From Sialis fuliginosa (lineage: Eukaryota > Arthropoda > Insecta > Megaloptera > Sialidae): a stretch of DNA of 64,000 nt. Of this stretch, positions 43,011 through 63,589 are shown in pieces. Position 1 is the first letter of the stretch; each line of letters begins with the position of its first letter. The DNA is taken from assembly GCA_961205875.1 (NCBI GenBank), contig OY540817.1:19875001-19939000 (forward strand), given 5' to 3'. The notes beneath the pieces were generated by a model, which saw only the letters and a list, made by a program, of their open reading frames with translations, ran no database searches and was not told the origin of the DNA. The translations under genes and the position numbers were made by a program.

Positions 43011-46000
43011 ATGGCCAATTTAAATAATTATTTAAATTTTAATAATAAATCAATAACAAAAGAAGAACAAAATTGTAAGTAGTTATTAATATATTAGTTT
43101 TTTCTAGGCCTAAATTTAGGTACTATTTTCTTTTAAAGTTATCGCCCAAAGTACGAAGTGTTATATATCATTTTAAAGATTTTTTTACTAACTTCCTTTA
43201 TTTCTTTGAACATTTTTCATAAAATTTAATTTTCACCTATTTTAAGGTGATTAAAAAAAGATGTCGAAAAATTTTATTTTTATGAGTTCAAACTCGACCT
43301 CAGTGCAATTAAATAATTGTGTTTTCAGATACCATATATGGTTACTTAAATAATTCGGATTTCAAAGAAAATATTAAAAACATAACATTACGTATTGCAA
43401 CGTTACAGGTAAATTAAAATTTTAAATATGGCAGATTTCGAATTAATTTTCATAATGAATTAATCTTCCAAAACAGAACTATCCATTGAGTTATGCTATA
43501 AAAACAAAAGATGACACATGGGAAGGTAAAGGGGTAGCGTTTGAACTATTAAAGATTTTACAAGAGATGTTTAAGTTTAACTTCACTGTTGTTGTTCCGG
43601 AAGATGTGAATAGTTTGGGGGTACCTGATTCAGGAATATATGGACTTTTTCAAAGAGAAGTAAGTTTAGAATAGAATGTAGATATCTAGGAATATCTCAT
43701 TATTTTACATTTGCTTTGTATTTGAAAAAATATTCTTGTTGGCTTCTTTTATTCGACCAATATTTTAAAATAAATATATAACTCTTCATATAATAACATT
43801 CCATATTTTCAACCAAATAAAAGCAATTATAATTTTACTGCAAGTACAATACACAGTTGACTCTCGATAATTTAAAACTCAAGGGGCCAGAGAAAAAGTT
43901 CAATTTACCGAAAATTCAAAATAATAAGAGTTCAAATATTCGGATCAGGCAGAGTGTTGACGAAAGAACCCCATCCCGGTAATGGACGAAGCGATGTTCA
44001 TTCGAAAGCATTTATTACGGACAAAATCTCGCATTATGAACGCTTGAGCAAAACTTTTCCCAACCATCCGCAAGAGCAGAATTCTTACAGTGACTCAAAA
44101 TCACAAGTGTCAGTGATTACGTGTATGACAAAGGCTCTTCGAAAATAAGTATGGATATAGAATCAGCAGCGATAAAAGGATTCTTTGAATTTCAAGTAAC
44201 TGGTAAGAATTTGAAGATTCCAATTATTAGAACAAAAGTTCAGCATCAAACTCACTCAGTTGATAAGCAACATATCTGACGTACTTGATGGGCATGGAAT
44301 AGTATGCAGCGTGCCAGATTCGATTAACAATTTTAGATCGTATTCTAGGAAATATGTAGAGAAATTAAGAAGAAATTAAGAGTTCAAATAACCAAGAGCA
44401 AGTTACGAAAAAATTCAAATAAACAAGAGTTTGACTGAAAGTACGTACATATGTACAACGTGGTCTTTATTTAAAAAGTAATACATATAATATGTTCAGT
44501 TCGTACATACACTTATGAAAAATAAGTTTGAAAGAAGACTAAAAAATCAATTATGTACATAACAATGTACGTAAACAAAAGACAAGTATGTGCATGATCA
44601 TACATAATTAAACGAATTACAGAAGTGATTCAAACAAGCGCGAATCCAGAGGGGGTCATGGGGGACATGCCCCCCCCCCCCAAATCTCAAAAAATTAAAT
44701 AAATAAACACTTATTAAACACTAAAATAACTTTTTTGTCACAGAGTCACAGAGCATGACCCCCCCAAATTGTAAACTTAAATTCAACAGACTTCAAATTA
44801 TAGAGAGTTGGAGAGCACTGACTTTAAATTTAAAGTCAGTGCCGTTACTTCAAATTACCGAAGGGACGATGATACTCGTACATGGATTTTTTTTCAATTT
44901 ATCGAGTGTTTTTCAAGAGGCCGAAAAAAACTTCATATTATTGAGAGATTCAAATTATCGAGAGTCGACTGTATGAGTCTTTTTAAGTTTTGGAACCAAT
45001 CCATTATTTTTCCATATTATAACCTAACCTTGTGAAATAGGATTAGATGAAATTCAATTTAGGGGAATAGTAAATAATAAAATGAAAAATGTATTTCGAT
45101 ATTCTCTCCACATGTTTTAAGATTGTAAAAATTTATTCAGGAAGTAGATCTAGCAGCTGCCTTCTTGCCGAAATTACTCTACAGACAGTCCATCCTGCGA
45201 TATTCAACTGATTTAGACACAGGATACTGGATGATTCTCTTCAAACGTCCTGTACAGTCCATATTAACAAGTGGCCTCCTGCAACCATTTGAACTGCCCG
45301 TCTGGTTACTGATACTACTAACACTTGTAGTCTTTGGGCCTGTTATGTACCTCATAATCAAACAAAGAAAGCGCATCATACCTGAAGCGACAAACAATCA
45401 TAGTTATCCACTGTCTTCTTGCTACTGGCATTTATATGGAGGGCTGCTGAGGCAAAGCTCAGTTCTTGAACCAATATCAGGTATCGTAATTAAGAATGTA
45501 TAGGAAAATTACATTAGTATAAACCTATTTGTGCACGTCTACCGTAGTGATAGGATAGAAAAGAAATTAATGCCACATAATGTTGATGTGAACTTATTTC
45601 AACAAAATCTTCGTGTTGAAAAGAGGGTGGTATCTTTGTTTATAATTGTATATATGGTAAAACTTCTGTTGAGTTCTGTCCGGATGGGTAGATACAATAG
45701 CCCAAGATAGTCGTTTATTGTTGATGTGAAACAAAAATTATTAGATTTAGATAAACAAGGTGAAAGGTTCCTATCACAGAAAAAATTATTTGTAATTTTG
45801 TTTGATAAACATATTGTTTTACATTTCCAAATTTGGTGACCTCATATATAATTGCACAGTTTACTGATCTAACGTTCAGATTAGCCTATGAAATTGTGCA
45901 GACATATGCAATATGAAACAAAAAACATCACTGTTATAAAAAAAAAACATTTGGCAACCAAAACAAAGAAAAACATTGTCATATCTAATTTTTGTTTAAT

Positions 46001-48656
46001 ATAACTATAACTTGGACATTAAATTAATTCGTGTTAATGCCTATGAAACTGTGCAGACATGCAATATGAAGCAAAATGCATCACTGTTAAAGGGGTTGTC
46101 TAGTGTCCTGATCTAGTCAACGTGATAACAATTAAAGACATTTTTTTGTTCTAAGAAATCGGAATGTCGAAATTGTGCCACAATGTCGACTGTGTCAAAA
46201 AAAAACAATTGTTTCGACGTAATTTTTTTTAAGTCTAAGAGTGTGCTAATAAAATCCGGAAAACCGTTCCTCAATATCATGTGTAGTTTTTTCATAAATA
46301 GCCTCAAAATTTTGGCGTGAAGGTAGACGACCCCCTTAATTCGAGGTTTTGAGCATTCTTGTTGATAAAAATAAATTAAGAAAACTGAAATTGCACAATA
46401 ATTAACACAAATGTTACTATTTTAGATCCCTCTCGGCTAATATTTGCAACATGGTGGATCTTCATTACTATCATAACAGCCATGTACACAGCAAACTTGA
46501 TCGCATTTCTCAAAAGTACAAGTTACGTTCTGCCAATTAACAGTCCAATAGATATTGTCGACAAGAAATACCACTGGGTGACGCAGAAAGGTAATCTCGT
46601 AGAGGAGATGGTCACGAATAAGAGATACGGTGAATTGAATTACTTGAATGCTGATTACGGCTTGTTCACTAATGAGGGAAATGAAACAATTTTGAAACAT
46701 TGGGTGCTTGAAGAAAATTATTTGTACATCAAAGATCAACCAGGTATAGAATTATTTAAGGATAATAATTTATTCTTAATATATATATCTGTCCGTTAGT
46801 GCACTTATAACTCGAGAACCATAAACTAATCGTGTTTGTACTTAATTAATTCAACTAATTTTACAAAACACCTAAACAATAATTCCGCGTAGTCCACGCT
46901 AGCGAAGCCACCGGCACAGCTAGTATATGTATATTTAAAGAAAATTAAAAACTGTCTTTTCTACTGTAATATAATTTATAATTATGTGAAATTTCACTGG
47001 AAGTTAATTTATAAACAAAAAGCACCAGCAAAATTAAAACAAAATTTAAATTCGGTTAACTAACCGAAAATATATTGACAAACATATAATATGAAATCAA
47101 ATAATTTCAACCAGATCAAATAAAAAAGTCAATTGTACAATAATGTAACTTAACTTTTTTAGGGATGAACCACGTGCTACTAGAAAGTTACAAGCAAAGA
47201 GCAGAAGAAGGTATAGATGAGAAAAACAGATGCCAATTTGCTTTGATTCCATGGCCATTACTGAGGATGCCTAGAGCGTTCGCATATTCTAATAATTTTA
47301 CGTGGAAATATGAGTTTGACACAATGTATGTAAATTTGGATCAACAATATTTAATTGTTTCAATAATTATTATATGGCTGTCAATACGTTAGATGCGTCA
47401 TATTAATACGTATAACGTATTTTCTCAATTTGCAACAATAAAATTTTAAACATAAAACGGTTGCAATAATTAAAATTAATTCGAATATTTTTATATTTGA
47501 TTATTGGCAACATTTTCCGTATAGATCAGTTAAATATTTAATTGTTAAATAATATTTAACAATGTTGATAGAATAGAATAGATTTAAATCAAAAAATAAT
47601 TTGTGTACACATATGCAAAATGAATTAAATAAAGCATTATATTTCTCTATTCATTGATAGCTCTGGAACGTTTTTCATAAATAGTGTTATTTTTAACGGT
47701 CATGTAATTTGAACTTGGTCCTCTATATTTTTTTTAATCTACATATATAAATGATCTGCACAATAACAGACATCATTCTAACACCTTTCTATATGTAGAT
47801 TATATCACAATTTTATTTAAAAAAAAAAAAGAATTGAATGATACTGATTGTATTTTGCAAAAATAATGTGTTTTTTTTTTAAATGGCTAAATGCAAATAA
47901 AATATTGAAATTCAAGAAGAAAATAATAACTATGGTGATTGCAATGTTATGTATTCTGAGGAAACTTGATCCATCAATGGTATTTCTGGATGTTATAATT
48001 GATATTAAAAAAAAATCAAAATAAATGTATGTAGTATCCATGAAAGCAATTTTTATTCAGGTGTATTTCCTTTAAAACTTTTTCTGATGTTTTCTCTATA
48101 TTAATACACAAATTTGTGTTAATTTATTACGATTTACGAATGTAGTAAGAGAACGCTAGTTAATTTTTTTTTACATTTGCAATCGATGTATTTATTTTTT
48201 AGGTTAAGAAGAATGGTAGAATCGGGAATAGTGGAACACTTAATAAAAGAAAACCTTCCAAAAGCTCCTATATGTCCTCTTGACTTAAATACGGATGAAA
48301 ACCTAACAAATTGGGATCTACTGACTACATACCTGACTCTCATAGCTGGAATTGTCATCTCGGTGTTAACACTGTTAATCGAATTACTCTTTCGACGGTC
48401 GAAGTATTTAATATGGTTCCACCGGCCAAAAGATGAAGAAAATCAAGAAGACAAAAATTTTGAAAAAGATATTTCATCTTTACCGCCGCCTCCTTCTTAT
48501 AATTCGTTGTTTCGGAAACCTTTAACAGGAAGTAATATGTGGAAGAAAATAACTTTTAATGGAAGAGAATATTGGGAAAGAAAATCTAAAAGTGGATTGA
48601 ATTTGTTGCCGATAAGAGCGCCATCTGCCCTGTTGTTTCAATATACGATAAAATGA
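43011..48656 (+). CDS. Ionotropic receptor IR76b-type, divergent tandem copy 1
   Basis: Seven exons: 43011-43074, 43329-43408, 43477-43659, 45141-45480, 46426-46743, 47163-47325, 48203-48656, all in phase, 533 residues. Family layout: S1 ligand-binding half (LRIATLQNYPLSYA ... FKFNFTVVVPED), then VDLAAAFLP, M1 (LPVWLLILLTLVVFGPVMYL), pore region, M3 (FATWWIFITIITAMYTANLIAF), S2, M4 (~440-465) and a cytoplasmic tail with PPPPSYNSLF. IR76b is a co-receptor that forms cation channels with tuning IRs in olfactory and gustatory dendrites. The exon structure equals the downstream copy, with one extra intron (46744-47162). The M3 motif is changed: TANLIAFLK where the other copy has TANLTAFLT. No signal peptide is seen; the first Met is a best guess and a 5' exon may be missing. 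No stops or frameshifts. Intron 3 holds a pogo-like element. Confidence 0.82.
43852..44971. mobile_element. pogo/Tigger-like element in IR76b-1 intron 3
   Basis: Ends cacagttgactctcgataat and attatcgagagtcgactg, flanked by TA on both sides; this terminus is characteristic of pogo/Tigger elements of the Tc1/mariner superfamily. The interior is decayed: an internal TIR-like sequence (aacaagagtttgactgaa, ~44425-44443) and a GC-run insertion (~44644-44760, with cccccccccc) show rearrangement. A 64-residue ORF at 43954-44148 may be transposase residue but I cannot assign it. Confidence 0.65.
45885..46092 (+). repeat. Diverged direct repeat in IR76b-1 intron 4
   Basis: gcctatgaaattgtgcagac (45894-) and gcctatgaaactgtgcagac (46039-), each followed by catgcaatatgaa-like text and catcactgtta. 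Period ~146 bases. Class unknown. Confidence 0.5.
46840..46924 (+). repeat. Possible Helitron-like 3' end in IR76b-1 intron 5
   Basis: ccgcgtagtccacgctagcgaagccaccggcacagctagta-type ending, familiar from insect repeats that end in CTAG before T. The hairpin is weak and no 5' TC end was found, so the assignment is tentative. Confidence 0.3.
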
Positions 48657-49696
48657 TTTGTATTATTTACTTATATTATTTACAATATAATATAAATTAT
48701 ATATTTTCGGACTATGTACAATTTCTTTAAAATAAAAAAATAATTAATATAAAACGTAATAGAAGAAAAATATATTTAATACTTTTACGAAAATATTGAT
48801 TTTAAAATATGGAATGCATTACGGAATATTCATATTATCAAACGATAAAAGGAAAAATAGAAAAAACAGAAGTGATAAAATATATTGAAAAAAAAAGTAT
48901 TTCGAAACTGCAAATATTCAACTTGGCCCACCTAGTATTACCTCAATTCTGGTATTATAAATGTTATTTATAATAAATTTGAATATACTTATACTTTTTC
49001 TTTGACCGAACTAAATTTCCAATATTATTTTATTTGAGAATGTCTGATATATATTAATTAATTAATTAAAAATAATTGTGCTACTTTCGTAATTATGTAC
49101 CATCTAATTAAGAAAAACAAAGTACCATTGAATTAAACATACATATCTATCAAAATAAAAATCAAGATGATGGTGACAGATTATTATATGCAGTGAAATT
49201 GGATAAATAAATACACAGGTCATTTCAAAAACTTTTTAAACAAACACGCACGAACGTATTGGTCAGGATCACAGTCGCCTAACGTAATTTTTCTGTATCA
49301 AAAATATGGCAACGAATCAACTTGTATATACCAGTACATTTTGAAAACACGGTGTCAGCGAGAGTTAATTAAGTTACAAATATTTTTTTATTCTTGACAT
49401 TAGACAACAAAAGAAATAGAGCGAAATCTATTAAAATTAAAAAATATTAAGTATAATATACAATAGCTAATCTCAAATCAAAAAAATAGATATAAATAAT
49501 GATTTTCGCATCATTTTTAATGTACTTATTATTTTAATACTAAAATTACACCGAAGTTTCACATCAGACAACCACTGCAAATATTTAATTATTCATTATA
49601 TTCACTTGTTTGAAGAATACACAACCAGAAGAACTGACATGCGCTTCAGGGATGGTTCATAATTATGAGTATAACATTGATAAAGAATGAATAATC
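48657..49696. other. Intergenic spacer between the two IR76b copies
   Basis: About 1 kb, AT-rich, no ORF of interest and no clear repeat. It should hold the 3' UTR of copy 1 and the promoter of copy 2. The tandem copies are in the same orientation. Confidence 0.5.
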
Positions 49697-52600
49697 ATGT
49701 TAACGTTTATATATTGGCTGTTATACAGCACAAGCGCTTGGGGTACATTCTACCGTTGAATTTAGTGTTCAAGTAGGGAAATATAAAACGATATGTAACG
49801 TATTTATTTGAAAAAAAATTAATCAATTGTTTAAATTGAATTAATTACATAGAGTTTTCCATGAAGGTGTATTATAAAATAATTCGTCGAATCGAATAAA
49901 TATTTTACAAATATTAATTCAATGTGGAGAAAAAATAAACGTTTCAGTTTCAATAATGGACACAATGTTAATGGATTTGTGTTTAAATCTTACCCAGTGT
50001 TCACAAGAAATAGAATATGGAAATATCACAACATGTAAGATTTTACATTGCCTACATATTATATTAAAGTCTGCGTATTTAGGGGTAAAATTAATTATGA
50101 ACCTCATATTTTTCAAAACTATAATGTAATATTTTCAGAGAAAATCACCTCACATAAAAATAGATACCAAAGTATTTTAAAACAAAAATCGAGTTTGATA
50201 CGTATAATTAATATTAATGTAATAATTAAAATAAAACATTGTTTTATTGTAAGCTATTTTTGTTGTTAAATTAATAATGGAACAAATAAAAAAATTGGTT
50301 AACTAGTTCCATTAAAAAATACCTATTTAAAAGTGTATTTTAATAACAATTCATAAAAATAAATTAATTTAAAAAAATAGTTAAATTTCTTGCAGATAAA
50401 GCGGTTACATTTTAATAAAAACATTATGAATATGTATATTCACATTTTTATCAACAATAAAATACTTTGTCAATAGCAGCATAATGTTTACTTTCTGTTG
50501 TTGTAAAATAATGATAAATACATTGTTGCAAAATCAATATTTATTTACAATAAACACAGTAACAAATGAATTATGCCAACTCAAAACAGTAGCGCAGATA
50601 AGTTTTTTTTTTAAAGATTATCGAATAAACTTTTTTTAATAGTACATGCAATGAAAAGAAAAATTTGCCCTGTTTTTGTAACATTACGATGAAATTTGGT
50701 ACCCATATTTAAAATAACTGAAAGTAAGATTTACACACAAAATTTGGACTAAAGGATTTTAAACTATTTTTTTGTTCCTCAAAAACTTTATGTACTACAA
50801 GATTATCATTTTTAGTACCACCGCCTGTGCACTTAAACATATCCACAAGATTTTCCCATTTGCAAGACGAAATTCGGGGAAAAACATTACGAATAGCTAC
50901 TCTTCAGGTTAGTTTTAATGAAAAATTGCAAATATTAATGCCATAAGATTTAAAAAAAAGATTTATAGAAATTGGAAGATAAAAATTTCATTATTTTAGC
51001 CATTGTTCCAAAACATTTTATTTATTTAATTGTTGCAGTTTTCTGTTTAACTATATTAATTGTTGAGTTGCAAATGAATTTTTTTAGTAGCTTGACTTAT
51101 TTGAATATCAATCCAGTAATGTGATTTTAAAACTTTCTTTATAGAACATTTTATTTATTTAATTGTTGCTGTTTTTTGTTTAACTATATTTATTGTTGAG
51201 TTGCAAATGAGTTTTTTTTTAGTGACTCGACTTATTTGAATATAAGTCCAGTAAAGTGATTCTAAAACTTCCCTTCTAGAACTTTCCTTTGAACTATGCA
51301 GAGCAACAGCAAGATGGAAGCTGGATCGGTAAAGGCATCGCTTTTACTTTCGTCAATTTCCTCCAACAGAAATATAAATTTCAGTACACAGTTATAGTCC
51401 CACAAGATAACCAACTAGGTACAGACACAACTGGAATCATAGGACTTCTTAACAATGGGGTAAATTCAACTTAAAACAATTGAAAAAAAAAAAAAAATTA
51501 TGAACAGAATGAGACGAATAAATATGTATCATATTAAAGATAAACTTAATAATAATAAATTTATTTTGTTAAAAAATACTTAATGCGTAAGGAATGTAAA
51601 TTATTTATACAAATATGAAGTTTTAATAAATAAAAATACTTATTTGTACAAAGATGAAGAAAAAATCCTAAATAAATTTTTGTGTACGATTTTTAAAAAT
51701 AACCTTGTTAAAATAAATCATACTTATTTAAAACATTTTTTTTATTCGATATAAAATAAACAAAGACCTCATACACGAAATGGAAAAATAGTTTCCCGAT
51801 TTTAAATTATATAAAAAAAAACCTCACAAATTCTTGCTTGCTTACAAAATGATAATATTATCAATTATTATTTTATTTATTTGTAGATTTTTTGTCCTTC
51901 GAGCCGGATCGAAACGATATTTTATGAACAAATCGAAAAACAAATAATTTCTTTTTGTTCAGGAAGCAGATTTGGCAGCCGCATTTCTACCAGTTTTAAC
52001 ATTCGCAAGACAATACGTGACTTATTCTGCCAACTTAGACGTTGGCCGTTGGGTGGTCCTACTCAAACGACCGGAACAATCCGCTTCAAATACCGGCCTT
52101 CTGGCGCCATTCACATTATCTGTATGGCTACTTACTTTACTGTCACTCATCGCCGTGGGGCCGATAATGTACTTGTTCGTCGTTCTCAGAGCGAAACTTA
52201 TAAAGAATGACCCTACTAATAAAGTGTTCTCCCTGCCTTCTTGTTTCTGGTTTGTTTATGGCGCATTATTAAAGCAAGGATCGGTAATTAATCCGTTATC
52301 AGGTAAGTTGCAAAATCAAATAGTGAAAAGTATCTTAAGTATGACGAATTGTCTAGAAAAAAATAATAACAATGGCAAAAATAGAAATTAAATATGGTTT
52401 CGGTTTCTCTGAAGAAACTATTAAATTATTTCGGTATAATTTGTTGTGTGGTTCTTTCTAAGATAAAATAATAAAATTATTTGATCAAATTTGTTCAATT
52501 AAAGAAATGAAAAAAACTATTTCAAGAAAACGCCATAAAAAATAATTGAATAACTGTTATTTAAACTCGGCTACATATGTGTATATAGAAAAGTATGATA

Positions 52601-55324
52601 AATTATTGTGTAGACATTTTAAATAAATTATTAATTCCCTTGGTATGACAGAACTATAGCCTGCATAAAATGACGGTAATGTATTTATGATGATACAATC
52701 TAACGTTTTTTGTTGGGACAAATTATGTCAAGTTTAATAAGGCAGCAATATTATTGATGCTACATGTAACTACAGTTGTCTGTCATTATTATGAATATTT
52801 TAATCATTAAATACATTAAAGAATAAGTAATGCAGCTAATAATAAATAATAATGATGTTTTTTACCAGTTACGTATCCAAAGGGATAAACTGAGACACAC
52901 CTTTTTGCTATATTAAAATAATTTATTGCATTTCGAAAAATTATTAAGATTCAGAATTAAGATATTCAAAATCTGAGAAAGAAGTATACAGACTTGCGAC
53001 GTCTTTGTCGTTTAAATAGTATTAATTTTAATTAAATTCTCGCAAATTTCGCTGAGACAAAAGTTAGTACACTATCTGGAAAAGAAAGGACAATTTGAGA
53101 AACAAATGAATTTTTCTCCAAAGTTAAAAAAAAAAGAATTATTTTCCAAAATTGAAAAATCAAAACAGATCAATTATTATATAAACTGATAATATAAATT
53201 ATCTGTGTTGTAACAATGTATCTTTTATGAAATGGTTCAAAACACACCATTTTATTTCATTTTCATTTTAACAGAAGTTTTTCATTTTTATCATACAACT
53301 CAGCATATAAATACCATATATTCAATATTTTTCAAAGAAACTAATTAGAAATTAGAATACATTCCATACCATTCCAATTCCAGATTCATCAAGAATCATG
53401 TTTGCCACCTGGTGGATATTTATAACAATACTAACAGCCTTTTATACGGCAAATTTGACCGCATTTCTTACCCTTTCCAAATTCACTTTACCAATCGACA
53501 AACCGTCCGATATTGTGACCAAAAAGTACCACTGGGTCGCCCAACGTGGTCTAGCTATCCAAGAAGTCACAACAAACCCACTAGAAGAGTTAAATTACTT
53601 TGACATCAACTACGGCATGTTCTTAAGCGACTCGGATGAAATCATTTTAAACGATTGGGTTCTCCAAAAGAACTACATGTACATCAGAGATCGACCAGGC
53701 GTTGATTATGTTATGTACAAGGACTACCAGAAGAAGGCACGGCAAGGGATCCAGGAGAAAGATCGGTGTACTTATGTAATAACTCCTTGGGCACTTTTGA
53801 TCAGACCAAGAGCGTTCGCTTATGCAAAGACGTTTAATTGGACGAGTCTATTCAACCCAGTGTAAGTAAAATGGATTTAACTTTTATTCGATAAGGGAAA
53901 ATAATATATAAAAAATGATCAGCAGATATTTGAATTTCTAATCTTTGGGTAGATACTAAGAAGGTTCTACATTGGGCAGGAGTAATTTTAAGAAAATGTT
54001 TCAACTGCAAATACTTTTTTTTTGCTCTACACTTTGTATATTTCTCTCTTACAAATTATAATGACCTCTTTTTTGGCTCTACACTTTTCACTTTTGTATA
54101 TATTTTTTCTACTTGCAATTTTTCAACTAGTTTTCATTTTTGGAACTGCAGAAGCAAGCTACACACTAAAATAACCCCTAACATTGGGCATCAGACTTCG
54201 GTCAGTTTAACAAACGAAATTATTTTTTTCAAATACCAAATGAAAACAACAGAAATTTTATTAAAAATATAGTTTTCGAAGGATACTATTTTTCGTTCAA
54301 AAATTGGACGTTTCATTATTAAAAATAAACACTTCATGAATTTTTCCATTATTTTTTAAGAATGCAAATATCTATTAAAATCAAAAATGAAAACCCTTAA
54401 TTAATAATCTTCGTTATTATTACAATAATAGAAGATATTAAATATTTCATGTGATTTCCAAAATTGTTAAAATATAGAAATCTTATTTGGTTTATGGCAT
54501 ACATATACAGCTCTATATTTTCTATTAAATAAATACAAAAACTACTGTTATTGTTAATTATTAACCACGTCAAAAACAAAACATAACTTGGAATACGATT
54601 TTTTTTGTGCAGTGAAATTATGATAATTATTTTTGCATGTCAGTTTAACAAACGAAATTATTTTTAAAAAATACCAGATGAAAACAAGAGAACTTTTACT
54701 AAAAAATATAGTTTTCGAAAAATACTATTTTCGTTCAATAACTGGACGTTTCATTATTAAAAATAAACACTCCGTGAAATTTTCCATTATTTTTTAAGTA
54801 TGCAAATGTCTACAAAAATTAAAAACGGAAAAAATCTTCACTTTGGAAAATATACATAACATTAAAGTTATGTTTTTTCTTACAGACTAAGATCAATGGT
54901 AGAATCAGGCATAGTGGAGCATCTCGTTCGAACAGACTTACCGGACACTGAAATATGTCCAATGGACCTCAAAGAATCAGGGCAGAAGCTCCGCAACCGC
55001 GACCTGTTTACAACGTACATGGTCGTAGTAGCGGGATTCTTTGTCTCAACTGTGGCATTCATCGGTGAAGTCATATACAGACACCGGAACAATATAACAA
55101 GTTGTTTTTCGAAAAGAAATCAAGATAAAGAAACTGAGAAGGTACCACCGTTGCCCCCGCCTCCGTACCATACGATATTCCACAGCTCATATGTCAATAG
55201 TTCTGGTTGGAAGAAACAAATCATCAATGGGAGAGATTATTGGGTGACGAGGCCTGGGAATAGAGATAGGAGATTGATTCCAGTTCGGACACCTTCTGCT
55301 TTACTGTTTCAATATACGAATTGA
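49697..55324 (+). CDS. IR76b: Ionotropic receptor IR76b (canonical-looking copy 2)
   Basis: Exons: 49697-49742 (tentative signal-peptide exon), 49948-50034, 50816-50907, 51280-51459, 51963-52302, 53384-53861, 54886-55324; all phases agree, 553 residues (535 if translation starts at the Met at 49956). Exon 1 encodes MLTFIYWLLYSTSAW, a good signal peptide, but its donor GTACAT is weak. S1: LRIATLQNFPLNYAEQ ... FQYTVIVPQDN; then DLAAAFLP; M1 around SVWLLTLLSLIAVGPIMYLF; M3 FATWWIFITILTAFYTANLTAFLTL, the conserved IR76b signature; S2; M4 (TTYMVVVAGFFVSTVAFIGEV); and a tail with PPLPPPPYHTIF. As an IR co-receptor it should work with tuning IRs for amines, amino acids, acids or salt in sensory neurons. 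The last ~90 coding bases are repeated twice downstream (55340-55424 and 56697-56779). Introns contain duplicated segments. Confidence 0.9.
51009..51281 (+). repeat. Tandem duplication including a 3' splice site, IR76b-2 intron 3
   Basis: Two ~136-bp units (about 51009-51145 and 51146-51281), both containing attttatttatttaattgtt, ttgttgagttgcaaatga and a terminal aaaacttt/cttctag acceptor followed by aac. Only the second acceptor leads into the coding exon at 51280. Confidence 0.7.
54200..54835 (+). repeat. Diverged direct duplication in last intron of IR76b-2
   Basis: Segments ~54200-54390 and ~54640-54830 share gtcagtttaacaaacgaaat, atatagttttcgaa, ggacgtttcattattaaaaa and tttccattattttttaag. 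The copies are ~440 bases apart and do not encode protein. Confidence 0.7.
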
Positions 55325-56785
55325 AAGATATTTGAGATTATTGGGTGACGAGGCATGGGAATGGAGATAGGAGATTGATTTCAGTACGGACACCTTCTGT
55401 TTTACTGTTTCAATATACGAATTGATGCCCGGCCTACACGAGGCTAGTTTTTCAAGCTAACAAGGGGAAGCAACAGCACGGTTAATGAGAATTTCAATGA
55501 GTTTGTGGTATGTCAAACTAGAGCAAAAATAAAAAGACACGTGTCCAACAATTTGATCTCATAGGCCTTAATTACAAAGATAATTAACTTTGAAAATTTG
55601 TGTATTCAATATAACCGTGTATTATGTTCGCTCGAAATATAAGTGTGTTGGCCCTACGGTCAACGCGCTGGCGTCTCGCCTGGTTTTAAGATTTTGATTT
55701 TAATTTTTATTTACAATTATTTTTTATTTTTTTGTACACATTACCTCTCCCACTTGCGTAAAAATCGATAAATTAGACATAAATAAAACATATATTATTA
55801 TTGACAATGAAAATATTGATATATACGCCAGTACATAATTATTAATTTGTTTTAAAGTAAATTTAATTTATTATTGACACAACTCATTAGTTTTTAATTA
55901 ATAAATTTAAAAGTTTTAATAAAAAACAAACTTGAAAGAAACCACAAACATCTATTCTCAATAATAATATATGTTTTATTTATGTCTAATTTATCGATTT
56001 TTACGCAAGTGGGAGAGGTAATGTGTACAAAAAAATAAAAAATAATTGTAAATAAAAATTAAAATCAAAATCTTAAACCAGGCGAGATGCCAGCGCGTTG
56101 ACCGTAGGGCCAACACACTTATATTTCGAGCGAACATAATACATGGTTATATTGAATACACAAATTTTTAAAGTTAATTATCTTTGTAATTAAGGCCTAT
56201 GAGATCAAATTGTTGGACACGTGTCTTTTTATTTTTGCTCTAGTTTGACATACCACAAGCTCATTGAAATTCTCATTAACCGTGCTGTTGCTTCCTCTTG
56301 TAAGATAGCAAGCTAGTAACTCTATCCCCGTGTAAACTAAACTAGCTTTGTTTTTAAGCTAGTAAGCTGGCATCTCAAGCCAGGATAATTTAATAGGATC
56401 GGAATTAAAATGAATACTCAAGAAATTAAAAATTTAAGGGCGACTTATTGCCAAGAGCTGTCAAAAATTGAAAAATCAACCAGATCCGGAGCAGGTGTTA
56501 ATTAAGAGTATAAACTTAGAATGAATTGGTTTGAGGAATGTTACTTGTGCAATGATACTGTCTCAATATTCAAGCATCGTGTATACCGCTCTAGCTTGTG
56601 TCAATCCAAGATAGTAAGCCAGGATAGACGCCGCAAATACTAGCTTGAAAAACTAGCCACGTGTAGACCGGGCATGAAAGATGTTTGAGAGATTATTGGG
56701 TGACGAGGCTTGGGAATGGAGATAGGAGATTGATTCTAAAACGGACACCTTCTGCTTTACTGTTTCAATATACAAATTGAAAGAT
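55236..56785 (+). pseudogene. Two extra copies of the IR76b-2 last-exon end (tandem ~101-bp units)
   Basis: The end of the last coding exon (attattgggtgacgaggc ... ctgctttactgtttcaata) is repeated at 55336-55424 and at 56692-56780, each ending in the same terminal Phe-Gln-Tyr-Thr-Asn-like codons and a stop. The spacing of the first two units is 101 bp. The second and third units are separated by a 1249-bp transposon (55426-56674). They lie after the functional stop, so they are 3' UTR or dead sequence. Confidence 0.85.
55426..56674. mobile_element. 1.25-kb palindromic element, 3-bp TSD, PIF/Harbinger-like
   Basis: Termini tgcccggcctacacg and cgtgtagaccgggca, with continuing inverted arms: aggctagtttttcaagct against agcttgaaaaactagcc, and a ~330-bp internal pair (about 55465-55795 and 55970-56300; e.g. 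ttggccctacggtcaacgcg against cgcgttgaccgtagggccaa). Flanked by TGA at 55423-55425 and 56675-56677. The duplicated host unit at 55320 shows the empty site (gaattgaaagat), confirming the 3-bp duplication. No transposase. A degenerate relative is at 21092-21170. Confidence 0.8.
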
Positions 56786-58713
56786 ATTTGTAAATTTTTC
56801 AGTAACAGTTGAGAAATAATTAGATATTTGTTACATGACTTATTGTAATTTTGTATTCTTTTATTGTATATTTAATTTAATAGTAATTACATCTTATGTA
56901 AACGTAAAATAGTAAAGAATGTAAAAAGGTAATAGAATACATAGTAACTGATTATGGAATGTGGAATATACCAATAAATAAATAATTGAATGTTTTAATT
57001 GAATGTAAATAATTATGATTAATTTCACCTATCGCCCAATTTAATATTAGTTGTTTCTTACAATTGGCTATAGTAAAATGAAAAAAAAAATTGATTTTTT
57101 TACAAGTACCAACGCTTAATTATACCTCGACAACTTGCTAGAAAATTGGTTCAGAGCCCAAACTGCCCTTGAATGTGCGAGATGATATACAAAAAAAATG
57201 ACATTTTCGGCGATTTTTGAACATATCTTGCCCAGGGCGCCAAACTTACTAAAAAACTTACAAAAAACCATTTGTAGGAAATAAAGTATAAGGATCTTTT
57301 TTGTAATAATTAAGAGATATAAGAGAATAAAATTTTTAGCATGAGTGGAATCGATAGGGACTTTCGACATTTTATTTATAACGATGTTTTATCTTTACCA
57401 ATTTTTAACTCGATGCGAATTTTTCTTAGGTTTGGACTTTTTTGTCTGTTTTGGCTGGATTATTATATCCACATCCTGTCGTCAATTTACTAACCATTAA
57501 CAAGGATTATTATTATTATTTATGAAAAATAATTGCATCTTATCATCTGTAAAAAAAAACTCGGATTATTTCTACGACTTATAATTTTAAGATAAAGGAA
57601 AACTAACGAAATGTGGTCAAGAATCAAGATATAAAAAAATGTCTATTTAACCGGAAAAACAACAAAAAATAAAATAATAAAAATTATAATTTCTGATAGT
57701 AATTATTCATAAAAAAAGGTAGGTCTTAAATTCAAATACTGGCAAAAAATAAGCGTCTTCCTAAAAATGAGTCTGCTGAAAATGAAATAACTGTTTGGTT
57801 ATATTATCTAATTTTACTCGATAAAAAATAATATTTAAAAATTGTTTTGTGTATGATCTGTTGTAGGAAAAAAGATACGAAAATTCATATATATTTGAGA
57901 AGTGCCTTTTTATTGAAACTATATTTTTGCACGAGCAATAAAAGCTAGAACCATTTGAATAAGATGTTTTATTTTATAGTTATATTAGTTTTGCTGTAAT
58001 TTCTGTTAGATAAAGTTACCATACTCCAGATTGAATAGGAAACTTTTGTAAACATATAAAATACCTACATCAATCTAGGAAATGTATTTTAACGAAAATG
58101 CAATGTGTATTTCTGCTATAAAACAAATAGAATATGGTGAACTTGAATTAAAATTTTAACCAATATTATACAAGCAGAAAATAAATGATATTCAAATCAA
58201 ATCTAGTTTCACAAAAAAAGAAAAGATAAAGTTAAAAATCTGTTGCACAAGTTAAAAAAATGTAAAACTTTTTAAAAATATATAAAATGCCTACATCAAT
58301 CTAGGAAATCTATTTTAACGAAATTGCAATGTGTATTTCTATAAAACAAACAAGAATATGGTGAAAGAATTATAATTTTAACCAATATTATACAAAAGCA
58401 GAAAATAAATGATATTGAAATCAAACCTAGTTTTACAAAAAAAAAAGAAAAGATAAAGCTACTTTGTTGCATAAATTAAAAAAATAAAAATAATTAGAAG
58501 AAATAGGTCCATACTTCAGTAATACTTGTTTACTTAAAAATAACAAGTTGATAAAATAATATTTAAACAATTTGAAACAACCAAAATCATCACTTAAAAA
58601 AAAAATCTTCTCATCAAATTATGACAACGAAACCAATCTAGTTTTCACATATACAAACATAGAAACACTTTATTGAACCTAAAAAATATATACATGATTC
58701 AAAATGCACAATA
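56786..58713. other. 3' flank of SIL1 and IR76b-2, repeats, no gene
   Basis: AT-rich. The stretch at 57110-57250 contains cttgcccagggcgccaaact, resembling the interior of the hAT MITE at 35272-35844. A tandem duplication occupies 58035-58490. The ORF at 57116-57370 (-) is in repeat-like sequence and is not supported. Confidence 0.5.
58035..58490 (+). repeat. Diverged tandem duplication downstream of SIL1
   Basis: Two units of roughly 230 bp (about 58045-58262 and 58275-58490) share cctacatcaatctaggaaat, gcaatgtgtatttct, ttaaccaatattatacaa and agaaaataaatgatatt. Non-coding. Confidence 0.75.
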
Positions 58714-60467
58714 CTACAATTCATCTTGAACCTTCGAAACCACAGAATCGGATATATTTCTAATCACATCTTTCAGATATGTGAAATATAAATCCGCGTC
58801 AACACTAACACTTTTATTACTAGCATCGCTTTCCTTTAATTCAACTTGAGAAAGATTATCGTAACGCCGTAAATATTTTTTAAACAATATTCTGAAATCT
58901 TGTGAACTATAATGAGAATCACAAACGCGGCTTGATTCTTTGATCAATAAAAACAAATCCTCGATGTAACTATGATCATCCGAAGATAGTTTTTTGATTA
59001 AAGCTTTTTGTATTTCAATACACCATCCGTCATTTTCAAATCTAGTCTTTAAGAACTTAAAGACATTTTCAGAATGAACATTCCTTATTTGATTTTCACC
59101 AAAATACGCATTGTTGTCAACAAAAAGATCCAACAAAAAAATAAATATTTTGCGAGTCAGTTTTTCATCTTCATATAAGTTTATGAAATCTTTAATTTTA
59201 TCAAACCCTCCTGATTGTAAGAATTCCCACTGTGCTGTTGGAAACCGCCTCATTAAACTTATCAACGCTGAAAATGAAGTAGTTTTCAAATTCATAGAAT
59301 CAGATTCCAACAGTTTCAATAAAATCGGAATTATTTTTGCCTCATATGCTTGGATTTGAACTTTAGGATTATGCTGAACAGATGCGATAAACAACCTCAG
59401 TGCTTCAACTTGTAAAATTTCTTCAGGTAATAACAATGCAGGAAATATGATATTTTTCAAACCATCCATTTTCATAAATTCTTGAGCATTGTCTAATTGA
59501 TGAGTCAAATATTCTAAATCTATTAAAATGGCTGTAAATTCTTCAGTATTGTTGATCCCTTTTTGTTCATTTAATGTTCTGAACCGTTTAAAAAGATCGG
59601 CCATTATTTCAAAGTCGGATTTCACCGTTAAATTCAACATTCCGAATTCTCGTTTTAATTCTTCGTAACTACGAAACTTTGCCTTCACCTCTTCATGTTT
59701 TGTATTTTCTGGAGCTTTGTTTAATCCCTCTTCTATTAGTTTTTTTATTTGTTCATTGTTATCTTCTTGTACTTCAACAATTGCATTTTCCGATTGTGGT
59801 TTTTCATCATCTAAGAACTTTGCTTCTGTTATTTTTGTTTGAAAATTGTGCCTAATGTGAAGACCAGCAGGTAAATGTTGACCTGAAAATAAAAGATGAC
59901 AAATTAATATTAAAAATAAATATAGTACAAACCCAAGATTTATTTTAGTATTTTGCTTTCTAAATTATAAAAAATTATTTATTCAAAATTCAAATGCAAT
60001 AAGTACTAACTTTAGAAGGTAAATTCGTTGACGAAAAACTTCACTGATACATAATCCTAGGTCCTAGATCCACAACACACTAATCAAAAATTTCTTTATA
60101 AAATAATTTTATTCTTAAAACTCAACAATTATTTTTGATTATTCATAGCTTGATCATAACGAATTAATTTGAATATTGATTATTGAACTGTTGGTTTAAT
60201 AATTAACTTAAAAATCATTTTAAAACCACATAGAGCGATATTTATTTAATTTTAATATTACATAACCTCACTTTAGAATAATTTATTGCAATTTGTCATA
60301 AGTTTATTAATTAATATTAACAATTAATTTTAAAAATGCATACCTTTTTCTACGACTTTCCATTCTTTGGTAGGTTCGAATTTACTTCTGCTATTGGATT
60401 CTCTACTACAATAACCAATGCAACCAATGGATATAAATATCGTAAATAAAATTAATTTAAAAATCAT
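58714..60467 (-). CDS. SIL1: SIL1, nucleotide exchange factor for ER Hsp70 (BiP)
   Basis: Two exons, 60344-60467 and 58714-59882, joined in phase, 430 residues (human SIL1 461). Residues 1-20 (MIFKLILFTIFISIGCIGYC) are a signal peptide. The start of exon 2 (QHLPAGLHIRHNFQTKITEAKF) and the RSYEELKREF region match the SIL1 N-terminal segment. The remainder is an armadillo-like helical repeat domain (~105-400; LEYLTHQLDNAQEF, GLKNIIFPALL, LKTTSFSALISLM). The C-terminus is QDEL, a KDEL-type ER-retrieval signal. SIL1 binds the ATPase domain of BiP/GRP78 and promotes ADP release during protein folding. It is divergently paired with SVOP across a 309-bp interval that contains an ERSE-II-like site, which fits unfolded-protein-response control. 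Confidence 0.94.
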
Positions 60468-60776: not shown

Positions 60777-63589
60777 ATGCCTTGTTGCTGTAAAGAATTA
60801 TGTAAAAAAATCGTGTGCAAAAAAAAGAAAAAGCTAAAAGATCAACCTGAAATTACAGAGTACATATATGCACGTATTAGTTATTTAAAAATTTGAATGC
60901 ATTTTGATATTCTTTTAAATTTATTAGAATTAATAATTTATTCACAGTAATATTTTAACGATAATTTAAACTAAAATAAATATTCAATGCTGTGGATGTC
61001 AGGGTTTTTATCTAAAATATTTATTTACCTGTTGCTTATATAGACTCACCTGTATTACAACAATGCTTTGTATACTGCATACCTTTCTAATGTATTCCCA
61101 AAAATAATTTCGTATGACGTTTACTTATGTCATAATTACCGTTATGAATAAATATGTTATTCTAAAAAATGGTATTATTATAAATAAATATTTATATACA
61201 TAGTTATATTTAAAATAAGGTATGGGAGTAAACAGAATACATCTTTAAATTTATATATTTAATAATTTCTTTGATGACCATCACTAAAGAATCTGTCTTA
61301 AAATAATTATGAATAAAATAACTTAAAAACTAAAATTTAGTTAAAATCTTATAAGACTGAATTACATTCACTTTATATTTTAATGTGACACATTTTAGAA
61401 AGATGACTTCCAAACGGAATAGTGGGTACCAAGATCTAAATGGAACCAACAGAAGTGAACCATCTGAACATTCAGGACCTACAGTTCAAGAAATTGAAAT
61501 GACTACAGTATCAGTAGTACCTGATGGTAAATTTAATAAATTTAAAAAAAGGAAAATATAATTACATTATTTTTTCATTTATTTTTTAGATACATTTACA
61601 GTAACACAAGCAGTAAATGCACTAGGTTTCGGTTGGTTCCAAGTTAAATTATCGCTGTGGACAGGGTTATGCTGGATGGCAGATAGCATGGAGATGACGA
61701 TTCTTTCGATATTATCACCTGCGTTACATTGTCAATGGAATATAACTAGATACCAACAAGCGTTAACTACTACAATAGTTTTCTTAGGGATGATGCTCAG
61801 TTCAACGTTTTGGGGAAATTTGAGTGATAAATATGGGCGTAAACAAGTAATTATTATCTTATTAGTTTCAGTAAAATAATCAGTTTTAAAATGAACTTCT
61901 TACAGGCACTGGGGCTGTGTTCTCTATTACTGTTTTACTATGGACTTTTGAGTTCTTTCGCACCAAACTTTACTTGGATACTGATTTTACGTGGTTTGGT
62001 TGGATTCGCAATCGGCTGTGTTCCACAATCGTATGTATTATATAAAATTTTACCTGTTTTAAATGTGTTACAAGTTTTTTTATGCTTTATTTTTGCACTT
62101 GTTTGCTATGATTTTGTGTTTGTTTTTCTTTTGTAGTGTTACGCTATATGCCGAATTTTTGCCTAGAAAACAGCGTGCAAAGTGTGTTGTATTATTAGAT
62201 GTAAGTGTTTGTAAATTTTATACTATATAATGGGGTACTATTGCATCTATAAAGTTTTTCCGTTTGCTACATATAATTCTGAATAATTTCTTACGTTTTG
62301 CAGTGTTTCTGGGCATTAGGAGCATGCCTCGAGGTTTGTTTAGCTTTGATAGTGATGCCAACTTTAGGTTGGCAATGGTTACTAGCATTGTCTACGACAC
62401 CGTTACTATTATTTGCTCTAGTATGTCCGGTTAGTAATTAATCAAATATCTTTTTACTTTGTTACATTACTATTATTATTTTATTATTTCCAGTGGTTAC
62501 CTGAATCAGTTCGTTTCCATGTAGCAAGTGGTCAAACAGATAAGGCGCTAGCAACTTTAGAAAAAGTGAGTAATATTTTATACTTCAAAATTTTTTAATT
62601 AACGTTCTTAATTATTTTAGGTTGCTAAAGATAATAAGAAACCAATGTTACTCGGTCGATTGGTTGTCGAGCAATCATTTACAACATCAATTAATGATCG
62701 GGGACGTTTTCAAGACCTTCTAAGGCCTGTGTTGAGAAAGACATCATTGCTACTGTGGTTCATATGGTAAGCGATAAAAACATTGCAAGCTGATGAAAAT
62801 TTACTCAATTATTTTATTTTAGGATGTCGTGTGCATTTTGTTATTACGGTCTAGTATTAATGACAACAGAACTTTTTGAAGCGTCAACCACTTCTTCATC
62901 TTGTGCCACAACCGATGCTGTATCTAGAGCCTTAATGGAATCATGTTCTGCTAACTGTCACCCGTTGCAAACTACTGACTACATGGATCTCTTGTGGACG
63001 ACGTTAGCTGAATTCCCAGGAATATTCGCGACAATTTTTGTAATTGAGCGGTTCGGAAGAAAGTACACAATGTCGGTTCAGTTCGTTATTTTCGCGATAT
63101 GTATATGTTTTCTCATGATTTGTACAGAAAAGTAAGTGGCCATTATTTATAACGATTTACTGGAATATTTTTACTTAAAATTGCATTTTTCAGGAGAGCT
63201 GTATTGACAATAATGCTATTTATTGCTCGTGCTATAATAGCAGGAGTATTTCAAGCTGCGTACGTTTACACGCCTGAAGTTTACCCGACATCTTTACGAG
63301 CTGTAGGCGTCGGGTCTTGCAGCGCCATGGCTAGATTTGGTGCTATGGTTACTCCATACGTTGCACAGGTTGGTGTTAAATTATTTCACTTTTACAGTAC
63401 TCAACTAATTCGTAATGTAATTCTTTACAGGTTCTTTTGAAATCATCAATAGTAACCGCAATATCTGTCTATGCTTGCGCTGCTTTATTAGCGGCAGTTG
63501 CATGCCTTGCATTACCTATAGAAACAACTGGAAAGGACATGGGCGAAACTGTTCACAAAACTCAAAAAGAAATTAACGATCGGACTTGA
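60777..63589 (+). CDS. SVOP: SVOP-like major facilitator transporter (synaptic vesicle 2-related)
   Basis: Exons: 60777-60859 (proposed first exon), 61399-61526, 61590-61846, 61906-62030, 62137-62200, 62304-62429, 62494-62565, 62621-62766, 62823-63131, 63194-63368, 63431-63589; phases all agree, 547 residues, close to human SVOP (548). Starting instead at Met 61403 gives 518. The proposed first exon encodes [19 protein letters not shown], a Cys/Lys-rich tail that could be palmitoylated; its donor (GTACAT) is weak. Family marks: [26 protein letters not shown] after TM2, [34 protein letters not shown], and twelve predicted membrane segments. SVOP is an SV2-related vesicle membrane transporter in neurons; its substrate is uncertain, though organic cations/anions and nucleotides have been discussed. 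The last-exon end is duplicated at 63630-63735. Confidence 0.9.

What the first reader, a model, noticed from the sequence alone, without database searches (positions are those of the whole stretch)
43011..55324. Tandem duplication of the IR76b co-receptor
Two head-to-tail genes both have the IR76b architecture, with the same intron positions and phases through most of the length (340-nt S1/M1 exon in both). Established: IR76b is usually a conserved single-copy insect co-receptor. The downstream copy keeps the canonical M3 text (FYTANLTAFLTLSKFTLPI); the upstream copy is clearly diverged yet open throughout. A second co-receptor could change IR channel composition or expression domain.
Basis: partly seen in the sequence, partly recalled or inferred. 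Interest (0 to 1): 0.78.

Follow-up and report, generated by a model that had tools for sequence, protein, structure and literature searches.

The report
Duplicated IR76b co-receptor with altered pore
An insect related to lacewings carries two side-by-side copies of a taste and smell co-receptor gene that most insects have once, and the first copy has kept its outer parts but changed its channel pore, so it may work as a different kind of subunit.

Summary
Two intact head-to-tail IR76b genes, U (43011-48656) and D (49956-55324), lie in a genome that falls next to Chrysoperla in the trees. Both give stop-free GT-AG models (533, 535 aa) with matching intron phases; U has one extra intron. A whole-genome search with D finds no third copy, only two 90-nt fragments of D's 3' end; the same search with U did not complete. 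Full-length trees join U and D (99/99; 100/99 with outgroups), so the duplication is lineage-specific. Duplicated IR76b is already reported in Agrilus, Rhyzopertha and Pieris rapae.

What stands out is where U changed. Its ligand-binding domain evolved at about twice the family median, its pore loop and M3 gate at about 15 times (1.18 against 0.08; D 0.00). U lost the M3 motif found in 147 of 148 fetched IR76b proteins, including the threonine that I infer underlies IR76b's sodium leak. I read U as a maintained subunit with an altered pore; an ordinary second co-receptor looks less likely. Function and expression are untested.

The parts
43011..43074 (+). U (upstream IR76b paralogue) exon 1, tentative
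   Evidence: ATG plus GTAAGT donor, phase 1 as in D; lacks the hydrophobic N-terminus of the family
43329..43408 (+). U exon 2
   Evidence: GT-AG, phase 1 to 0
43477..43659 (+). U exon 3 (ligand-binding half S1)
   Evidence: GT-AG, IR76b profile 46 bits
45141..45480 (+). U exon 4 (end of S1, M1, pore loop), 340 nt
   Evidence: IR76b profile 134 bits; same length and phases as D exon 4
46426..46743 (+). U exon 5 (M3 gate and S2); carries MYTANLIAFLK in place of FYTANLTAFLT
   Evidence: IR76b profile 114 bits; motif count
46744..47162 (+). extra phase-1 intron of U, absent from D
47163..47325 (+). U exon 6 (S2)
   Evidence: IR76b profile 49 bits
48203..48656 (+). U exon 7 (end of S2, M4, C-terminus with IR76b signature, stop)
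   Evidence: IR76b profile 123 bits; stop TGA; AATAAA at 48731
49956..50034 (+). D (canonical IR76b) exon 1
   Evidence: LCLN block aligned with other IR76b
50816..50907 (+). D exon 2
51280..51459 (+). D exon 3 (S1)
   Evidence: IR76b profile 55 bits
51963..52302 (+). D exon 4 (end of S1, M1, pore loop), 340 nt
   Evidence: IR76b profile 174 bits
53384..53861 (+). D exon 5 (M3 gate and S2), canonical FYTANLTAFLT
   Evidence: IR76b profile 235 bits
54886..55324 (+). D exon 6 (end of S2, M4, C-terminus, stop)
   Evidence: IR76b profile 166 bits
55332..55425 (+). second copy of D's last ~100 nt, downstream of D's stop
56687..56790 (+). third copy of D's last ~100 nt, separated from the second by an inverted-repeat element
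   Evidence: 93% identity to 55231-55334; also found

Best explanation
IR76b was duplicated in tandem in a neuropterid lineage after it split from the Chrysoperla lineage. D stayed the ordinary IR76b co-receptor. U was kept as a full-length subunit with the IR76b ligand-binding domain and C-terminus, so it can probably still assemble with IR25a and tuning IRs, but its pore loop and M3 gate were rewritten. The most likely way it works is as an altered-pore or regulatory subunit. In complexes where it replaces D it would remove or reduce the constitutive sodium leak of IR76b and change which ions pass or how the gate opens. Shown: the duplication, its placement, intact coding, and concentration of change in the pore. 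Inferred: protein production, assembly, loss of leak, and a regulatory role.
For: U+D are sister at 99/99 and 100/99, and at 99/98 with the pre-M1 to M3 columns removed. All 3 of D's departures at conserved sites are also departures in U (hypergeometric p 0.009; Chrysoperla departs at one of them too). U departs at 20 of 91 columns conserved at 95% or more in 139 other IR76b; the next most deviant protein has 14 and the median is 0. Of the 20, 13 lie among the 31 conserved pore-loop/M3 columns (p 0.0014) and none among the 11 C-terminal or 11 S1 ones. On a fixed tree the pore branch of U is 1.16 against 0.00 for D and a median tip of 0.07; in the ligand-binding domain it is 0.69 against 0.26 and 0.36. 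With the divergent ant Monomorium added the pore values are 1.18, 0.00 and 0.08 (Monomorium 0.78), the ligand-binding values 0.67, 0.26 and 0.35 (Monomorium 1.31; U third of 30). U has I and K where 147 of 148 fetched IR76b have T and T (the other, P0060, lacks the segment). A review states that a T-to-A change in TM3 attenuates IR76b's constitutive sodium current (PMC7882480, passages read). U against D gives dN 0.43 with dS 1.47, or undefined by another method, which fits long-term constraint.
Against: No expression evidence. U's N-terminus is less hydrophobic than all 142 compared, so exon 1 may be wrong or membrane targeting may be changed. Pore-versus-ligand-binding excess judged by U-unique against D-unique sites reaches p < 0.05 with only 3 of 6 outgroups (0.062, 0.25, 0.048, 0.021, 0.33, 0.049). 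U is also fast outside the pore as a whole (0.92-0.95 against a median of 0.38-0.40). Monomorium, itself a fast row, also has a raised pore rate (0.78), so such change is not wholly confined to U. No U orthologue from another species was found, so dN/dS on the U branch itself could not be measured. The regulatory function is an inference from residues, and so is the identification of the review's threonine with the NLT residue.
Confidence: 0.5

Rival explanations
1. U is an ordinary second IR76b co-receptor (subfunctionalised), doing the same job as D in other neurons.
For: Full-length, intact, same architecture, same C-terminal signature; duplicates are reported in two beetles and Pieris rapae.
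Against: Loss of pore and gate residues otherwise nearly invariant in the IR76b proteins fetched; about 15-fold pore acceleration. The five firefly proteins all keep the M3 motif, though Lamprigera departs at two pore-loop sites, one of them K to R as in U.
Confidence: 0.17
2. U is turning into a tuning (ligand-specific) IR that partners with IR25a and D.
For: Fast overall evolution (Tajima p 6e-7 against D with Chrysoperla as outgroup; p 0.0035 or less with the 4 other outgroups); a tuning IR need not keep the IR76b pore.
Against: Tuning divergence is expected mainly in the ligand-binding domain, but here that domain is only about twice the median rate while the pore is about 15 times.
Confidence: 0.17
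3. U is a relaxed, dying gene whose reading frame has not yet been broken.
For: Longest IR76b branch (1.3, 1.5; only the ant Monomorium is longer, 1.83 against 1.33); unusual pore; uncertain exon 1.
Against: 533 codons and six introns intact over a divergence with near-saturated dS; the 11 conserved C-terminal and 11 S1 columns are all kept; second codon positions differ half as often as third (0.28 against 0.59).
Confidence: 0.13
4. U is an ancient IR lineage outside IR76b, or joins D only by convergence or conversion.
For: In the short-region tree with distant outgroups, U as basal to all IR76b was not rejected (p-AU 0.159).
Against: Full-length tests reject it: p-AU 0.0005 outside the other Holometabola, 0.016 outside the other Neuropteroidea, 0.025 outside D+Chrysoperla, and 0.044 basal to all IR76b with outgroups. 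These groups were named after a first quick tree had shown U+D.
Confidence: 0.03

Closest known systems
Insect IR76b (Drosophila Ir76b and orthologues)
   Same: Whole architecture, profile score, C-terminal signature NGRxYW...PSALLFQY, and placement in the tree
   Different: U lacks FYTANLTAFLT (147 of 148 fetched proteins) and WFVYGxxxKQG (135 of 148); it has MYTANLIAFLK and WHLYGGLLRQS
IR76b duplicates in Rhyzopertha dominica, Agrilus planipennis and Pieris rapae
   Same: Duplicated IR76b co-receptor, reported in print (PMC8956072, PMC6720082, PMC10210156; passages read)
   Different: Other insect orders; the Pieris pair is over 90% identical; the passages read say nothing about pore change
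Firefly IR76b copies (Abscondita FQR65_LT14765/14766; Photinus; Lamprigera)
   Different: Separate clade and origin; all five keep FYTANLTAFLT, while Lamprigera departs at two pore-loop sites

Membership tests
IR76b | Groups with insect IR76b and not with other IRs or iGluRs | tested here: met
   U+D 100/99, all IR76b apart from 4 own-genome outgroups 99/98; U basal to all IR76b rejected at p 0.044 there, but not in the short-region tree, p 0.159
IR76b | No amino-terminal domain; S1-M1-pore-M3-S2-M4-CTD in about 500-660 aa | tested here: met
   533 and 535 aa, against 504-662 aa in the 139 comparison proteins; Lig_chan above cut-off in both; the ligand-binding Pfam is below its cut-off of 30 bits in both, 21.1 in U and 29.8 in D
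IR76b | C-terminal NGR[DE]YW ... PSALLFQY block | tested here: met
   Present in U and D; 11 of 11 conserved CTD columns kept in U
IR76b | Pore and gate signature FYTANLTAFLT and WFVYGxxxKQG | tested here: not met
   Met in D, not in U. U is therefore filed as a diverged IR76b paralogue by descent, not as a functional IR76b
IR76b co-receptor function | Co-expressed with and required by tuning IRs; sodium leak when expressed alone | not testable with these tools
   No RNA-seq or electrophysiology on hand

The most novel reading that the evidence does not exclude
U is an IR co-receptor that evolved by rewriting its pore while keeping its ligand-binding and assembly parts: a naturally leak-free or non-conducting IR76b that sets the ion flow of IR channels in some neurons. 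[quoted passage not shown]
Probability: 0.3. Interest if true: 0.75.

Novelty: new variant of a known kind. Interest (0 to 1): 0.5.

Why it matters
How IR co-receptors contribute to the pore is, as far as I know, an open question. IR76b conducts sodium on its own, yet it also works as a partner subunit. A natural paralogue whose excess change lies in the pore and gate could separate these two roles and gives a ready test: swap U's pore into D, or replace Ir76b with U, and see which functions survive. It also shows that a usually single-copy co-receptor can be duplicated and reshaped.

Tried and rejected
Haplotype duplicate: rejected, because the copies are 46-47% identical as proteins. Third IR76b copy: none at the places of the 33 PF00060 matches of the own genome (the 30 outside the window lie in loci examined) nor in the whole-genome search with D; the same search with U was busy. 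Compensating frameshifts across M3: I looked by eye at the U and D exon 5 DNA printed, and it aligns without gaps; no formal test. U orthologue in Chrysoperla: not found, but this is not evidence of absence, because neither the search with U nor the alignment search returned even Chrysoperla's known IR76b, which was itself a row of the query alignment. Ancestral state of U's extra intron: not decidable, since only proteins of relatives were at hand. Species name: not determined; the nearest named relative in the trees is Chrysoperla (Neuroptera), so Neuropterida is inferred. In-print check for neuropterid IR76b duplication: the listings (30 of 33 papers; 35 of 37; 25 of 271; 15 of 132; 30 of 51; 10 of 573) showed no such title or abstract; these are partial listings and most of the papers were not opened. 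The passages of PMC11302349 and PMC13205551 mention IR76b without naming a duplication.

Rows dropped: one search left out 9 of the 148 fetched proteins as partial, fused or odd (P0009, P0020, P0060, P0064, P0070, P0072-P0075). Trees used chosen rows of the 148, plus U and D: 46, 29, 28, 26, 27, 28. The fast ant row Monomorium (P0071) is but was left out; one search was run to put it back into the rate comparison, and U's pore remains the fastest (1.18 against 0.78). The D search matched 297 proteins, of which 120 were listed.
Full report
WHAT IS THERE. Two genes lie head to tail on the + strand with 1.3 kb between them. U has 7 exons and 533 codons, D has 6 exons and 535 codons; every intron is GT-AG and neither has a stop inside. 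U has one more intron (46744-47162). Pfam finds the ligand-gated channel domain in both; the ligand-binding model stays below its cut-off in both. Against a profile of 139 other IR76b proteins plus D, U scores 546 bits and D 710 (D's score is flattered by its presence in the profile).

COPY NUMBER. The window is C9:19875001-19939000 of a 392-Mb assembly in 20 contigs. A search of that assembly with D finds the exons of D and U, two 90-nt fragments of D's own 3' end just downstream, and then only weak matches to other receptors, best E 2.9e-12. So two IR76b genes are seen. The same search with U did not complete.

WHERE IT COMES FROM. D's best hit is Chrysoperla carnea IR76b at 51% (order Neuroptera); U's closest match is D. 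A quick tree of 48 rows joined U and D at 98, then Chrysoperla at 82. The careful full-length tree of 30 rows joins U and D at 99/99, then Chrysoperla at 89/88, with beetles as their sister. Placing U outside D+Chrysoperla, outside the other Neuropteroidea, or outside the other Holometabola is rejected at p 0.025, 0.016 and 0.0005. With four own-genome receptors as outgroup the same shape returns (100/99, then 95/88), and U basal to all IR76b is rejected at p 0.044; without the pre-M1 to M3 columns U+D still stand at 99/98. Against this, a shorter-region tree with more and longer outgroups left U and D unresolved within IR76b and did not reject a basal U (p 0.159). The outgroup names (IR25a-like, IR8a-like, IR93a-like, NMDA) are my labels from recalled motifs. 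D's branch (0.40) and the U+D stem (0.39) suggest a duplication roughly half way between the split from Chrysoperla and now; this is a rough inference.

WHERE U CHANGED. Of 91 columns conserved in at least 95% of 139 other IR76b, U departs at 20 and D at 3; the next most deviant protein has 14 and the median is 0. U's departures fall before M1 (A150I, G152T, A157Q), in the pore loop (F206H, V207L, K213R, G215S), in M3 and its exit (L239I, F242M, T248I, T252K, L253S, S254T, F256Y, T257V), and at five other sites (L228I before M3, three in S2, one in M4). By my region limits 13 of 20 lie in pore loop to M3, which holds 31 of the 91 columns (p 0.0014). Identity tells the same story: in pore loop to M3, D and Chrysoperla share 88% but U and D only 63%, whereas in the ligand-binding halves U-D (46%, 50%) is like D-Chrysoperla (45%, 48%). 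With the topology fixed, U's branch is 1.16 in the pore (D 0.00, median tip 0.07; 20% of the whole tree) and 0.69 in the ligand-binding domain (D 0.26, median 0.36; 4% of the tree). That comparison had left out the fast ant row Monomorium; with it the pore values are U 1.18, Monomorium 0.78, median 0.08, and the ligand-binding values Monomorium 1.31, U 0.67, median 0.35. So U still has the fastest pore, and of these two fast rows only U has a pore faster than its ligand-binding domain, but Monomorium's pore is raised too. Over all non-pore columns U is about 2.3-2.5 times the median. A cruder count of U-unique against D-unique sites, pore against ligand-binding domain, gives p under 0.05 with 3 of 6 outgroups. 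FYTANLTAFLT is in 147 of 148 fetched proteins; the one without it (P0060) lacks the segment. WFVYGxxxKQG is in 135 of 148.

HOW IT MAY WORK. A review states that IR76b is a constitutively open sodium channel in HEK293T cells, and that a threonine-to-alanine change in TM3 attenuates the current and blocks low-salt responses (PMC7882480, passages read; the primary paper is not held). GluD1 has alanine where IR76b has the T of NLTAF (aligned), so I infer that this is the residue; U has isoleucine there and lysine four residues on. From recalled AMPA-receptor structures both positions line the closed gate. U also has R for K at the site that I take, from the same alignment and recall, as the Q/R-site equivalent, and S for the glycine two residues on. 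A leaky pore of the D kind is therefore unlikely. Since the ligand-binding domain and C-terminus are kept, I favour a subunit that still joins IR complexes and changes their pore. None of this has been measured.

IS U ALIVE? dN between U and D is 0.43-0.45 and dS is 1.47 by one method and undefined by another, so near saturation; codon positions differ at 42%, 28% and 59%. A neutral copy would not be expected to hold 533 open codons and six introns over that span. Weak points: no expression data, no U orthologue elsewhere, and exon 1 without the usual hydrophobic stretch (below all 142 compared).

WHAT IS KNOWN. IR76b duplicates are reported in Agrilus planipennis (PMC6720082), Rhyzopertha dominica (PMC8956072) and Pieris rapae (PMC10210156), and one gene in Diabrotica (PMC9840275); passages read only. 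Fireflies carry an independent old duplication; their five proteins keep the M3 motif, though Lamprigera departs at two pore-loop sites, one of them K to R as in U. Searches listed no paper on IR76b duplicates in Neuropterida; these were partial listings. So the duplication is a further case of a known event, and the pore rewriting is the part that I did not see reported.

Noticed in passing
window 55231-56790: The last ~100 nt of D, stop codon included, are repeated twice downstream (55332-55425, 56687-56790); the second and third copies are separated by an element of about 1.25 kb with inverted ends (38 nt, 92%) whose 352-nt inner arms are 97.7% alike.
   Followed up: partly
window 43853-44972: A 1.1-kb element with terminal inverted repeats sits in U's third intron; it looks pogo/Tigger-like by eye.
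   Followed up: partly
window 58044-58490: Tandem pair of a unit of about 224 nt; its matching pieces are 82-97% alike.
   Followed up: no
window 58714-59964, - strand: A 416-aa uninterrupted stop-to-stop reading frame, SIL1-like by eye (recalled); no Pfam match.
   Followed up: partly
window 61361-63440, + strand: Reading frames that look by eye like exons of an SV2/organic-cation-type transporter.
   Followed up: no
proteins P0012, P0020, P0080, P0081, P0100: Fireflies share an old IR76b duplication of their own; the two Abscondita proteins have consecutive locus tags.
   Followed up: partly
protein P0071 (Monomorium pharaonis): This ant IR76b is the second most deviant at conserved sites (14) and also has a raised pore rate (0.78 against a median of 0.08); other ants were not examined.
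   Followed up: partly
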